Positions 45,089 through 50,099 of a stretch of 64,000 nt of DNA are shown here, in pieces. The position numbers and the translations under genes are program-made. This stretch comes from Saccharomycodes ludwigii (lineage: Eukaryota > Ascomycota > Saccharomycetes > Saccharomycodales > Saccharomycodaceae), in NCBI RefSeq assembly GCF_020623625.1, contig NC_060205.1:675501-739500 (forward strand), read 5' to 3'. The notes under the pieces are model-generated. The model was not told the origin of the DNA, made no database searches, and saw only the letters and a list, made by a program, of their open reading frames with translations. Every line of letters begins with the position of its first letter. Within the stretch, counting starts at the first letter, position 1.

Positions 45089-45107
45089 ATCTTTTTTATT
45101 TATCTAT

Positions 45108-45206
<99 letters not shown>

Positions 45207-45558
45207 TTTTCTTCTTTCTGTTAATGGTAAATATGTATATGTAGTCGAAAATATTGACATTTAACAAAGCGTAAAATTTTTTTTTTGTTTCCATTCTCTT
45301 TTTTATAAAACCCTATATTAGGGTTTATTCCTATTTATCGGATATCAACAAAAATATTTTTAATTAACCCAATTTTACCGAATGTCCGATTAAGCATTAC
45401 GATATATATATATATATATATATATATGCATTTTTTTTTTCTTGGGAAAATTAAGACATAAAAAAAAACAAGCTCTACCAAATATTAAAAGTCGTTTTAA
45501 ATTATCCCTTCTTTATTGAACCACACATAACATCACAACTGACAATACCCAATCAAAA
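45089..45558. other. YHB1-PTC7 intergenic region
   Basis: 470 bp. It holds the (TTTA)n array, an inverted repeat AAACCCTA-TAT-TAGGGTTT (45308-45326), and (AT)n at about 45401-45426. The inverted repeat includes TTAGGGTT, whose complement AACCCTAA matches the Tbf1 consensus ARCCCTAA. No gene is seen. Confidence 0.5.
45105..45209. repeat. (TTTA)n microsatellite, about 26 units
   Basis: About 105 bp of near-perfect TTTA repeats start 17 bp after the YHB1 stop, so they are probably in its 3' UTR or terminator region. Confidence 0.95.
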
Positions 45559-46755
45559 ATGTTTAGACTAACCATTGGCTTTGGAAGAAAAAGTACGTTT
45601 TTAATTATTCTTATTATAACCATTATTTTCCCAGTTTTAATCTCATTGCTGTTTTCATTATTATACCCCACATCGTCAATTTCATTACTAACAAATAACA
45701 ACATAATTAATAATTTGTCATCATCTTATTCATTGTTTTTAGGAATTACAACTTCTTTCTACAACAAACTTTACAATGCCACAACCCATAGTTCTGCCAA
45801 TAATGCATATTTTAAGAGAACTTTTTTCAATTCCGCATTCAACGCTAGCAGCAATTCAAGTGGATCAAGTAGTTCAAATTTCGCCAATAATACCATATCA
45901 GCATTCAATTATAAAGTTTCAGTTGCATACCAGCCAAAGGATCGTAGTGACCCAATATATGAAAAAGTACTAGTAGCTAAGAATTCACCAACTGGCGAAG
46001 ACAACTATTTTATTAACCAAAGGGAATCTAACGATTTATTTTGTGGTGTCGCCGATGGTGTTGGTGGGTGGATTGAAATGGGAGAAGATTCAAGTGCCAT
46101 ATCCAGAGAACTATGCAGTAAATTAAGCGAATTCTCCAATAAAGACAAATTTTCATCAACCACTAAACAACTATTAATTGAAAGTTTTAATGAGGTAGTT
46201 AAAGAGGGTGTTGTTAAGGCAGGCAGCACTACTTGTATTGCTGCTCATTTGAAACCAAACGGGGAGCTAGAAGTTTCTAATTTGGGCGATTCTTGGTGCG
46301 GTGTTTTCAGAAATGACAGCTTAGTTTACCACACCAACTTCCAAGTACTATCCTTTAATGCACCATATCAACTAAGTATTATTCCCAAGTATATCTTGGA
46401 TTCGGCTAAAACGAAAGGGAGTGGTTTTATTAGAAATACACCTGAAGAAGCAGATGATTATAAATTCCAATTAATGAAAAATGACGTTGTTATCTTGGCT
46501 ACCGACGGTGTTACCGACAACGTCGATACTGGCGATCTAGCCAACTTTCTACGTGATAATGAGATTAGCACCAAGACACAATCCCAAGAAAATCTAGATA
46601 GAATTACCAAGGATTTAGTCGGTAAAACAGTTGCGCTAAGTAAAGACCCACAGTTCCCAAGTATTTTTTCTCAAGAATTATCAAAAATTACTGGTGCCAA
46701 TTATGTTGGTGGCAAAGAAGACGATATTACATTAGTCCTAGTTAAAGTAGAATAG
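45559..46755 (+). CDS. PTC7: Ptc7-type PP2C phosphatase, with a retained/alternatively spliced in-frame intron
   Basis: Mitochondrial PP2C (PPM) phosphatase linked to coenzyme Q biosynthesis. The unspliced frame has 398 codons; removing 45593-45742 gives 348 (Sc spliced form 343). The PPM core shows FCGVADGVGGW, a GSTTCIAAHL-like strand, LGDSWCGVF and VILATDGVTDNVD, with metal-binding aspartates. Unspliced, the N-terminus MFRLTIGFGRKS runs into a strongly hydrophobic segment (about 13-36), predicting a membrane-anchored form. Spliced, it reads MFRLTIGFGRKRITT, basic and without the membrane segment, like a mitochondrial presequence. Sc PTC7 is known to make both forms, with the unspliced one at the nuclear envelope. 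Its stop is 14 bp from that of NMD2. Confidence 0.95.
   Translation: MFRLTIGFGRKSTFLIILIITIIFPVLISLLFSLLYPTSSISLLTNNNIINNLSSSYSLFLGITTSFYNKLYNATTHSSANNAYFKRTFFNSAFNASSNSSGSSSSNFANNTISAFNYKVSVAYQPKDRSDPIYEKVLVAKNSPTGEDNYFINQRESNDLFCGVADGVGGWIEMGEDSSAISRELCSKLSEFSNKDKFSSTTKQLLIESFNEVVKEGVVKAGSTTCIAAHLKPNGELEVSNLGDSWCGVFRNDSLVYHTNFQVLSFNAPYQLSIIPKYILDSAKTKGSGFIRNTPEEADDYKFQLMKNDVVILATDGVTDNVDTGDLANFLRDNEISTKTQSQENLDRITKDLVGKTVALSKDPQFPSIFSQELSKITGANYVGGKEDDITLVLVKVE
45593..45742 (+). other. PTC7: Candidate alternatively retained intron in PTC7 (150 nt)
   Basis: 5' splice site GTACGT at 45593, perfect branch site TACTAAC at 45686-45692, and the first downstream AG in TTTTTAG at 45741-45742. Length 150 is a multiple of three and it contains no in-frame stop, so both spliced and unspliced messages encode protein. 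I saw no other TACTAAC-with-splice-sites set in the window. Confidence 0.85.
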
Positions 46756-46769
46756 TGAACCTATATAAT

Positions 46770-49700
46770 CTAATTGTAATTTTTATTTAACACAAAGTTT
46801 TTGATTCTTTCACGCTCATCTTCTCTTTTCAATTTTTCTTGCAAAACATTAGAAACAAATTTTATATTAGAGGGTAATTCTATCTTTTTGCTATTGACTT
46901 TCTTACCGGATCTAGTCAAAAATTTAAATGGAACTTTGCCAGGAGCATTGGTAGTTTCTGTAGCCCCACTGCTTGTAACATCAATGCCGGCATTATTTTC
47001 GTTGGCATTGTTGTTCACATAAGAAGTAACAGATAAATCGCTAACATCAATAGCTGGCATAAATGATCTTGTAGTTTTTTCGTTTTTTCTACTAACCATA
47101 CTTTCCTGCATCATAAATTGAAATTCTTTATCTAATTCACTTTGTGCCTTTAGCTCTTCTTCGGTTTTCAATATTTCCTCATATTCTTGCTGAATCCTCT
47201 TAATATCCAACTCTCTAGCTGCAGACAATGGGTCGTCGGAGTCGGAGTCAGAATCAGAATCAGAATCAGAATCAGAATCAGAGTCAGAATTGGAGTCAGA
47301 GTCAGAGCCAGAGCCAGAGTCAGATCTAGACCCAGTTGACAAATCAGAAACACTGGAGATAAAAGTAGAAAGAACACCTAACTTATCACCATTATCTTCT
47401 TCGTTGCCACTTGCTCCCTCTTCTGCATCGGAAGAATAGTACTTTTCGTCCTCACTAACATCACTCAATTCGCTAGCTTCAGCATTTATTATATCATCCA
47501 ACTCATCAATTTCATTTTTACCTTCACTTCCCTCGTTCTCTACATCTCCCTCTTCTTCATCGCCTAAATTTTTATATTCGTCCATCTTTTGTAACATACT
47601 AGTTAATTTGGCACCACTTTCTTCCAAACTGCTGGAAACATCTTGTAATGGAAACTTTTCAAATATTTGGGCAATTTTAAACTCAACAGCTTTGGGGAAC
47701 TCAATATTCCCTGTCTCGCTTAAACTCCTTTTCTTGAAAAAAATATAATACTCAAAAAATCTCATATACAACTCTAACTTATGTCTAATAAATTTGCTTC
47801 CAACAACTTTCTTATTTTCAGAAATTCCACACAAGACAATATGAATTAAGGAAATCCGGAAGTAATTATTTGGCATGTCCAACGGGTTGGATTCAAATGA
47901 TAACAAACCTTGAGATGAGTACCCAAACTTAACAAATTTATACAAATGATCTAAAATGATATTAAACTTGATTAAATCTGTGTTGAAAAATTCAGTTAAA
48001 TATTTAACCTGTGCAATTCTGGTCATATTCATCGACATATCATTTAGTTCCAAACCAAGTTGTATCTGTTCCAAAGTTGTATCAATGCATTCAATTGTAA
48101 ATTTTTTATAAAAATTCTGTAATAAAGACACAATCTTGGCTAGTTTCGGGATATAATTATAACTTATTAATTCAGGTTTGCAAAATAAATCCAATAGAAA
48201 TTCATACGTTTGAGGATCTTTCCAATTACATTTCCTAATCAAATTGGTCACAATTTTGGTTTCAAAATAGTCCAATTCTTTCCTAATTAATATCTTCAAA
48301 AAAATCTGTTCTGATGTCAAAGTTTTTTCATTCTCTTTTAATTTTCTCATATCTGGTGGAAATAATATTAATAAAATGCCATCCAATTGTTGCTTATTAT
48401 TTAATGATAAATGAAACTCCTTCCGTTTTTCTTTGATCATAGCCACCATTTTTAACATCTGCTCCCTATGTTCTGGACTATTCAAAAGATATTTCCCCAT
48501 ATTTTCAATTAATATGGTTAAAATTTCAATGTTATTAGGAACATTCAAATTTAAAATTAAAGTTCTAATCTTATGGAAAATCATGAATGAAGGTAGCATT
48601 TTAAACTTTGTCATTTCAGCAAAAAAAATAATATTTTTAACGTTAATTTTGTTTGTGTGTAATTGGCTTCTAAACCCACTATCCAAATAATTGGTTAGCT
48701 CTTCTAAAATCTCAGGCATTAGGTTATTGAAAATTACTAAGAAACGAGAATATAACCTGATCTTGCTCCAATCCTGTGATTCCATAAAAAACTTCAGTAA
48801 TCTTTTCCTGGTGGCTTTATTATCCAAATTCTCTTGAATGTACTCTTTGGCTAATGCGTCAATCGTTTCAGCGGTTTCGCAAGTTTCCAAATGATTGAAA
48901 AATACATTTCTGATATCTTGCTGTCTTTTATCATTAATTTTGGTGGCAGTATTTTCTGGTTGTTCAAAATTTTCCATGTTAGGTAGAACTTCATAAAATT
49001 TTCTAGTTTCTTCATTTTCCCATATTCTTTCAAAGGCTGGTTTTACCTTATTCGTAATCATATCGTTATTGCTGCTAATAGCGGTTATTTCGTTTGTGGT
49101 CTCTTCACTACCGGCTTCATTTGTAACAATATCGTTAGTGAAATCTGAGGACATAGCGGGTAAATTTAACCCTAATTCTGGTGCCAATATCTCACAGGAG
49201 GCATGAAACCTATCATAGATTATTTTCAATTCATCGTACTTTTCAGTATATTCATTTGTTAATTTACCTGTTCTGATTTGTGCTTTTTCATGTTCTTTCA
49301 TTAACTTTCTTAATGTTTTGTTTAAATCAACGGTCTGATTAATCGCTGCCTCTGTTAATAAAGTAAACATTTGCCTAACCATATAAATTGATTTTTCATT
49401 GACGCCGTAATCTTTGACCAATATAGATTCCTCTCCCCCTTCATCATGGAAAAATTCAGGGAAATTTTTGACAAATTTTGTAGCTATTATTTGAGTGGTT
49501 AACCCATTTTTAAATTTATAATTCAAAATTTCTTTCAATACACAGATCAATAGTGGATCTTTTTTTTCAAGTCTTGCTAAGATAAAACTGGGGAATTCAT
49601 TTTTATAATCTAGAAAAAAAGACGCTGAAGAGGAAACTATCCCACACAATAATAATTCCGTAAAAATTCTTAATTGAGAAGAAATAAATTTTAGTTTGGT

Positions 49701-50099
49701 ACAAGTCTCCTTTTCATCAGCAGGTAATGCTGAAATATCAAAATTTTGCAACCATAAAACCATAAATTTTGGGGTAAAATCAGCACCAAATCTTTGGTGT
49801 AACCCACTAATTACCTCTATACAAGCAAAAACGTCATCATTTTTATTAGGTATTTTTTTTAAACCTTCTACCAAAGTTGTAGTAATTTCACTTAAATATT
49901 TTGATAATTGAACATTGCATAAATCAGATTGTAAACTAGATAATGATTCTTTGAAAATACCTTGTCTTAATTTTTTAATAAATCCTGTATTTTTTTTAAT
50001 ACTAGAATCTAGTTTTTTTGATAGGTTTGGATAACATGGCGCATGTATCCAACTTTCATTATTTAAGTTATATAATTCTAATCTTCTTTCTCTATTCAT
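46770..50099 (-). CDS. NMD2: Nmd2/Upf2, nonsense-mediated decay factor
   Basis: Cytoplasmic scaffold of nonsense-mediated mRNA decay that bridges Upf3 and the Upf1 helicase. 1,109 residues (Sc 1,089). Three MIF4G-type helical domains are recognisable from blocks such as KKLDSSIKKNTGFIKKLRQG, VISGLHQRF, KDPLLICVLKEILNYKFK, DNKATRKRLLKFFMESQDWSK and YLDSGFRSQLHTNKINVKNIIFF. A long acidic stretch with (SD)n follows, and the Upf1-binding C-terminus (FKFLTRSGKKV, IKFVSNVLQEK) is conserved. Sc NMD2 has an intron close to its start; here the homologous N-terminus reads straight from the ATG, so that intron seems absent. Flanked by PTC7 and YHR078W-like, as in Sc, with PEP7 interleaved. Confidence 0.96.
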   Translation of the reverse strand: MNRERRLELYNLNNESWIHAPCYPNLSKKLDSSIKKNTGFIKKLRQGIFKESLSSLQSDLCNVQLSKYLSEITTTLVEGLKKIPNKNDDVFACIEVISGLHQRFGADFTPKFMVLWLQNFDISALPADEKETCTKLKFISSQLRIFTELLLCGIVSSSASFFLDYKNEFPSFILARLEKKDPLLICVLKEILNYKFKNGLTTQIIATKFVKNFPEFFHDEGGEESILVKDYGVNEKSIYMVRQMFTLLTEAAINQTVDLNKTLRKLMKEHEKAQIRTGKLTNEYTEKYDELKIIYDRFHASCEILAPELGLNLPAMSSDFTNDIVTNEAGSEETTNEITAISSNNDMITNKVKPAFERIWENEETRKFYEVLPNMENFEQPENTATKINDKRQQDIRNVFFNHLETCETAETIDALAKEYIQENLDNKATRKRLLKFFMESQDWSKIRLYSRFLVIFNNLMPEILEELTNYLDSGFRSQLHTNKINVKNIIFFAEMTKFKMLPSFMIFHKIRTLILNLNVPNNIEILTILIENMGKYLLNSPEHREQMLKMVAMIKEKRKEFHLSLNNKQQLDGILLILFPPDMRKLKENEKTLTSEQIFLKILIRKELDYFETKIVTNLIRKCNWKDPQTYEFLLDLFCKPELISYNYIPKLAKIVSLLQNFYKKFTIECIDTTLEQIQLGLELNDMSMNMTRIAQVKYLTEFFNTDLIKFNIILDHLYKFVKFGYSSQGLLSFESNPLDMPNNYFRISLIHIVLCGISENKKVVGSKFIRHKLELYMRFFEYYIFFKKRSLSETGNIEFPKAVEFKIAQIFEKFPLQDVSSSLEESGAKLTSMLQKMDEYKNLGDEEEGDVENEGSEGKNEIDELDDIINAEASELSDVSEDEKYYSSDAEEGASGNEEDNGDKLGVLSTFISSVSDLSTGSRSDSGSGSDSDSNSDSDSDSDSDSDSDSDSDDPLSAARELDIKRIQQEYEEILKTEEELKAQSELDKEFQFMMQESMVSRKNEKTTRSFMPAIDVSDLSVTSYVNNNANENNAGIDVTSSGATETTNAPGKVPFKFLTRSGKKVNSKKIELPSNIKFVSNVLQEKLKREDERERIKNFVLNKNYN

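What the first reader, a model, noticed from the sequence alone, without database searches (positions are those of the whole stretch)
45593..45742. PTC7 carries a stop-free, in-frame 150-nt intron that switches a membrane anchor for a mitochondrial leader
Directly seen: GTACGT, perfect TACTAAC and TTTTTAG, length divisible by three, no in-frame stop. Unspliced adds a hydrophobic segment right after MFRLTIGFGRK; spliced removes it and leaves a basic leader. Sc PTC7 is known to have such a regulated retained intron (93 nt as I recall). Here the intron is longer with the same phase logic, so two-product splicing appears conserved in a non-duplicated lineage. The intron encodes the whole membrane segment, making splicing the localisation switch.
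Basis: partly seen in the sequence, partly recalled or inferred. Interest (0 to 1): 0.78.

Follow-up and report, generated by a model that had tools for sequence, protein, structure and literature searches.

The report
PTC7 intron encoding a membrane anchor
In the wine yeast Saccharomycodes ludwigii the phosphatase gene PTC7 has an intron that can also be read as protein, so one gene can encode a mitochondrial form or a membrane-anchored form; the trick is known from baker's yeast and its family, and here it is seen in a neighbouring family, with signs that the membrane anchor is older than the intron.

Summary
PTC7 (45559-46755, +) is open as 398 codons, and as 348 codons once a 150-nt phase-1 intron (45593-45742; GTACGT, TACTAAC, TAG) is removed. 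The intron encodes the whole hydrophobic segment; the spliced leader is basic, with no acidic residue before position 78. The species is Saccharomycodes ludwigii; its deposited protein is the spliced form. The device is published for Saccharomycetaceae, pre-duplication species included, so the two-product idea is not new. New here: (1) it lies in Saccharomycodaceae, outside the family to which a 2013 paper dates the gain; (2) the 5' splice site departs from this genome's GTATGT preference, a plausible cause of partial retention; (3) protein comparison suggests that the anchor predates the intron. Phaffomycetales (13 of 15) and many CUG-Ser1 proteins have an N-terminal hydrophobic segment but rarely the peptide trace of a branch point (1 of 13, 3 of 42; 55 of 58 in the intron clade; pattern chosen after inspection). 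In CUG-Ser1 yeasts a Met at the anchor's end is conserved (36 of 42 long forms), and 24 of 42 short annotated forms begin there, which suggests the same two products by alternative starts. No RNA data and no DNA of relatives were available.

The parts
45559..45592 (+). PTC7 exon 1 (MFRLTIGFGRK plus one base; net positive)
   Evidence: start as in P0001
45593..45742 (+). retained-type intron, 150 nt, phase 1, stop-free in the PTC7 frame
   Evidence: absent from deposited protein P0001
45593..45598 (+). 5' splice site GTACGT (off-consensus at +4 for this genome)
45598..45654 (+). codons of the best 19-residue hydrophobic window, residues 14-32 of the unspliced form
   Evidence: KD 3.16
45686..45692 (+). 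branch point TACTAAC, read through as part of L-L-T in the unspliced protein; branch A to 3' end of intron 51 nt
45740..45742 (+). 3' splice site TAG, first AG after the branch point
45743..46755 (+). PTC7 exon 2: basic leader, Ser/Asn-rich linker, PP2C domain, stop
45814..45828 (+). KRTFF, the conserved K/R-R-x-F motif after the anchor; possible presequence cleavage region (inferred)

Best explanation
PTC7 of S. ludwigii makes two Ptc7 phosphatases by splicing or retaining one in-frame intron. Spliced mRNA gives a 348-aa protein whose basic, acid-free N-terminus (MFRLTIGFGRKRITTSFYNK...) acts as a mitochondrial leader. Retained-intron mRNA gives a 398-aa protein with a strongly hydrophobic helix right after the start; it is captured at the ER/nuclear envelope instead. 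The off-consensus 5' splice site (GTACGT) with a perfect branch point keeps splicing inefficient enough to be tunable. Shown: the sequence anatomy, the deposited spliced gene model, single copy, the off-consensus site, homologous position. Inferred: that both RNAs exist, their regulation, and both locations (by analogy with S. cerevisiae).
For: Anatomy and open frames. S. ludwigii protein P0001 equals the spliced form with one substitution. Hydrophobicity beyond the stop-free shuffles, 5 of 3049. Single PTC7 match in the 12.5-Mb assembly. Control: of 26 candidate GTATGT introns in 40 chosen regions, 11 met my gene-like criteria and 0 of 26 were 3n and stop-free, so an in-frame intron is unusual here. 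GTATGT...TACTAAC 68 against 20 control (11 of the 68 are copies of one repeat), GTACGT 5 against 15, GTAAGT 20 against 60. Hanseniaspora osmophila and H. vineae carry a hydrophobic segment at the same place, 25 of 27 residues identical between them. In S. cerevisiae the spliced form is mitochondrial and the unspliced form nuclear-envelope, with Ptc7u more prominent in fermentable media (review PMC6506691, passages; Marshall PMC3597508).
Against: No RNA or protein data. A T-rich stop-free intron tends to read as hydrophobic: 1864 of 3049 stop-free shuffles pass 1.6. Stop-free reading by chance is about 15% (3049 of 20000). The P0001 gene model may have been fitted to homologues (annotation method in PMC6256542, whole text) and is no transcript evidence. 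The RNA fold of 45559-45800 is not special (z +1.20), so no structural switch was found. The amphipathic moment of the spliced leader is modest (0.389).
Confidence: 0.75

Rival explanations
1. The intron is spliced almost fully in S. ludwigii; only the mitochondrial form matters and the open frame is a relic.
For: Perfect TACTAAC and first-AG acceptor; only the spliced protein is deposited among the listed hits.
Against: Off-consensus 5' site; hydrophobicity in the top 5 of 3049 stop-free shuffles; anchor conserved in Hanseniaspora, 25 of 27.
Confidence: 0.12
2. The intron is hardly ever removed (weak 5' site); the protein is always membrane-anchored.
For: GTACGT...TACTAAC pairs are not enriched in this genome, 5 against 15.
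Against: Branch point and acceptor are intact; homologous introns are spliced in S. cerevisiae (PMC6506691). The count is confounded by CpG scarcity, as the reversed control has no CpG.
Confidence: 0.06
3. Two forms are made, but the unspliced one is sorted to the mitochondrial inner membrane: short basic leader plus hydrophobic stop-transfer segment.
For: Three basic residues before the segment and the KRTFF motif after it.
Against: Very hydrophobic N-terminal segment favours the ER route (general knowledge); nuclear envelope/ER reported for the S. cerevisiae form (PMC6506691, PMC11239977, passages).
Confidence: 0.07

Closest known systems
Retained-intron PTC7 of Saccharomyces cerevisiae (Juneau 2009; not held, known here through citing papers)
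   Same: Same gene; intron near the 5' end, 3n, stop-free, encodes the membrane segment; spliced form mitochondrial. Residues at the splice point fit phase 1 in both.
   Different: 150 nt here against 93 nt (31-aa difference between 374- and 343-aa Saccharomyces proteins). Perfect TACTAAC here, whereas a review says the S. cerevisiae intron lacks a consensus branch point (PMC6506691). GTACGT here; most relatives read M at that codon, fitting GTATGT (47 of 58).
PTC7 of other Saccharomycetaceae, incl. Zygosaccharomyces parabailii (69 bp, PMC5433688, passages)
   Same: In-frame intron with the anchor
   Different: S. ludwigii belongs to Saccharomycodaceae (PMC6256542)
PTC7a/PTC7b of Tetrapisispora blattae (Marshall 2013)
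   Same: Same two protein forms
   Different: There split over two genes; here one gene. My scan agrees with the paper: P0070 has the segment without splice traces, P0068 has no segment.

Membership tests
Ptc7-type PP2C phosphatase | PP2C/SpoIIE-type domain and Ptc7 homology | tested here: met
   PF07228 above cut-off (37.5 bits against 25); PF13672 and PF00481 just under their cut-offs. 1060 homologues, many named PTC7 among the 120 listed. Neighbouring NMD2/UPF2 by Pfam; that S. cerevisiae has the same neighbour is recalled.
PTC7 retained-intron switch | intron of 3n nucleotides without in-frame stop | tested here: met
PTC7 retained-intron switch | intron encodes the membrane segment; none in the spliced form | tested here: met
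   KD 3.16 against -0.15; no dedicated predictor such as TMHMM was available
PTC7 retained-intron switch | spliced form has a mitochondrial targeting signal | tested here: inconclusive
   5 basic and 0 acidic residues in the first 20, first acidic at 78, moment 0.389; no targeting predictor available
PTC7 retained-intron switch | homologous position and phase | tested here: met
   protein alignment places R-S-[T/M] at the 5' site in one column; phase-1 5' splice-site trace in 51 of 59 hydrophobic-segment proteins of the clade; DNA of relatives not available
PTC7 retained-intron switch | both mRNAs and both proteins made, regulated by carbon source | not testable with these tools
   no RNA or protein data
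PTC7 retained-intron switch, as dated in Marshall 2013 | confined to Saccharomycetaceae | tested here: not met
   S. ludwigii is Saccharomycodaceae (PMC6256542); species from P0001

The most novel reading that the evidence does not exclude
The membrane anchor of Ptc7 is older than the intron. An anchor-coding stretch was an ordinary exon in the ancestor of Saccharomycetales, Phaffomycetales and CUG-Ser1 yeasts, and became an intron by gaining splice signals (intronization) before Saccharomycodaceae and Saccharomycetaceae parted. So splicing added a way to make the mitochondrial form, rather than intron gain adding the anchored form as published. CUG-Ser1 yeasts make the same pair by two start codons flanking the anchor.
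Probability: 0.45. Interest if true: 0.65.

Novelty: new member of a known kind. Interest (0 to 1): 0.43.

Why it matters
PTC7 is a textbook case of one budding-yeast gene making two functional proteins by intron retention. A member in Saccharomycodaceae pushes the device back before the split from Saccharomycetaceae, against the published dating. If the anchor is older than the intron, the case becomes a traceable example of an exon turning into a regulated intron, and of three ways to the same protein pair: splicing, gene duplication (T. blattae) and, possibly, alternative start codons (CUG-Ser1). That would imply a still unknown job of the anchored phosphatase worth conserving.

Tried and rejected
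Chance: the open frame alone (3049 of 20000 shuffles) or motifs alone (GTACGT pairs 5 against 15) would not convince; rejected as the whole explanation because of homologous position, the deposited spliced protein and the extreme hydrophobicity.

RNA structure as the switch: the fold of 45559-45800 is weaker than most shuffles (184 of 200 fold at least as well); dropped.

GTACGT as a conserved special 5' site: dropped. Of 58 relatives with the segment, the codon there reads M in 47, K in 3, T in 2, no trace in 6.

Hence no codon-level test in Hanseniaspora, Phaffomycetales or CUG-Ser1.

Hanseniaspora: P0002 and P0003 carry the residues S-K-F and L-L-T that would fit GTAAGT and TACTAAC, but I found no clear 3' site trace by eye (K-A would need AAG), so splicing there stays open. 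No fast-evolving Hanseniaspora was named among the 120 listed of 400 hits; whether they lack the gene was not tested.

Rows dropped: 3 of 183 sequences (P0048, P0065, P0121) had no usable domain start, and 16 fell outside my three tree groups; 4 of those 16 were added to the CUG-Ser1 set. Group support was 0.636 (Saccharomycetales), 0.987 (Phaffomycetales) and only 0.044 (CUG-Ser1). An earlier grouping dropped 37 of 182 by a too narrow pattern and was replaced.

Full report
What is there. PTC7 lies at 45559-46755 (+) and is open from ATG to stop as 398 codons. Within it, 45593-45742 has GTACGT, TACTAAC at 45686 and TAG at 45740-45742, 150 nt, phase 1. Removing it leaves 348 codons. The S. ludwigii protein P0001 is this spliced form with one substitution at residue 143. 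The listing names only the species; that it is strain UTAD17 is my inference. The window's assembly has 12,500,424 bases in 8 contigs and one PTC7 match. That fits the 7 chromosomes, 30.9% GC and 3.3% intron frequency given for S. ludwigii (PMC8567612, passages; window GC 32%). Neighbours are a flavohaemoglobin-like gene and an NMD2/UPF2 homologue by Pfam.

The two products. The intron encodes residues 13-61, with part of codons 12 and 62. Its best window FLIILIITIIFPVLISLLF scores 3.16; the spliced N-terminus -0.15. The spliced leader has 5 basic and no acidic residues in 20, and the first acidic residue is at 78. The charge bias before the segment predicts a type II anchor with the phosphatase domain on the lumenal side (positive-inside rule, general knowledge). 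Five N-glycosylation sequons lie between the segment and the domain, so EndoH would test this.

Controls. Shuffles: 3049 of 20000 stop-free, 1864 of those at 1.6 or more, 5 at 3.16 or more. Thus T-richness explains much of a hydrophobic reading but not its extent. Genome: GTATGT-to-TACTAAC pairs 68 against 20 in the reversed control, of which 11 are copies of one repeat near contig ends; GTACGT 5 against 15, PTC7 included; GTAAGT 20 against 60. GTATGT is therefore the preferred 5' site and PTC7 departs from it at +4; part of the GTACGT deficit may be CpG scarcity. In 40 regions that I picked from the 68 places, 26 candidate introns had an upstream ATG frame, 11 met gene-like criteria, 6 of the 11 were 3n, and 0 of 26 were 3n and stop-free. 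All of these are GTATGT introns with a limited donor-to-branch distance.

Prior work. Marshall 2013 (PMC3597508; abstract, passages, sections 11 and 16) states that a 3n stop-free PTC7 intron is conserved in twelve Saccharomycetaceae, pre- and post-WGD, that homologues outside the family lack an intron at this position, that it was gained in an ancestor of that family, and that the gain provided the nuclear-envelope form. Z. parabailii has a 69-bp version (PMC5433688, passages). Carbon-source control in S. cerevisiae is described in a review (PMC6506691, passages). The protointron paper (PMC6726248, passages) proposes that in-frame introns such as that of PTC7 may evolve from protointrons inside coding sequence, which resembles the intronization reading given here. 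Searches for PTC7 with Saccharomycodes (0 papers) and with Hanseniaspora (1 paper, a fermentation transcriptome, listing only) showed no report of the intron in Saccharomycodaceae in this library; subscription papers are mostly not held.

Beyond the family. A FastTree of 180 phosphatase domains groups S. ludwigii with H. osmophila and H. vineae (support 0.945). Both Hanseniaspora proteins carry a hydrophobic segment at the same place, 25 of 27 residues identical. The intron, or at least the segment it encodes, thus predates the split of Saccharomycodaceae and Saccharomycetaceae, unless gained twice.

Anchor before intron? Hydrophobic N-terminal segments (KD17 of 1.6 or more) occur in 59 of 69 Saccharomycetales proteins, 13 of 15 Phaffomycetales and 42 of 80 CUG-Ser1 proteins. 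They are absent from the five sampled Pichiales/Alaninales/Ascoidea proteins (P0107, P0139, P0142, P0146, P0152). Splice signals read through as protein leave traces. A phase-1 5' splice-site trace occurs in 51 of 59, 7 of 13 and 4 of 42. The TACTAAC trace in the broad scan occurs in 26 of 59, 2 of 13 and 8 of 42. The stricter [ILV]LT scan downstream of the segment gives 23 of 58, 1 of 13 and 2 of 42. Allowing TACTAAT as well ([ILV]L[TI], chosen after looking at the sequences) gives 55 of 58, 1 of 13 and 3 of 42. T. blattae serves as a check: the copy reported without an intron (P0070) has the segment and no traces. So in Phaffomycetales the anchor seems to be read as plain exon. Against this: 7 of 13 Phaffomycetales do show a 5'-site-like trace, annotated starts may be wrong, hydrophobic segments align easily, and no DNA could be checked.

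Alternative starts in CUG-Ser1. Of 84 proteins (80 in the tree group plus 4 added), 42 are long with the segment. In their alignment one column at the end of the segment is Met in 36 of 42, the commonest single residue of any column printed there, followed by L/F, L/V, S and, a few residues on, K-R. Of the 42 short forms, 24 start with a Met 7 residues before that K-R. A Met near the segment's end occurs in 40 of 42 CUG-Ser1 against 13 of 59 Saccharomycetales and 1 of 13 Phaffomycetales proteins (a Fisher test ignores relatedness). Two nested starts would give an anchored and an unanchored form. This is inference from protein records.

Verdict. The finding is real and its reading is sound at sequence level, but it is a new member of a known kind. 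The interest lies in its place outside the family and in the hint about what came first.

Noticed in passing
related proteins P0077, P0085, P0087, P0102, P0136 and others: CUG-Ser1 Ptc7: Met conserved at the end of the N-terminal hydrophobic segment (36 of 42 long forms) and used as annotated start in 24 of 42 short forms; suggests two start codons giving anchored and unanchored forms.
   Followed up: partly
5' splice-site codon in relatives: In 47 of 58 Saccharomycetales proteins the 5' site reads as [G/S/R/C]-M, fitting GT-ATG-T: an in-frame AUG sits inside the splice site, and a few annotated proteins (for example P0007, P0035, P0064) appear to start there. S. ludwigii has none (GTACGT).
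   Followed up: partly
45105-45208: Tandem ATTT repeat of about 100 bases between the flavohaemoglobin gene and PTC7.
   Followed up: no
46770-50099 (-): NMD2/UPF2 homologue open without an intron; no TACTAAC on the minus strand near its start. S. cerevisiae NMD2 has a 5' intron (recalled).
   Followed up: no
G000, 11 places near contig ends, e.g. C1:13004-13069, C2:22006-22071: A repeated element GTATGTGTGTTGTCAGTTCTAGATCTAG...TACTAAC, apparently subtelomeric, looks like an intron donor and branch point.
   Followed up: no
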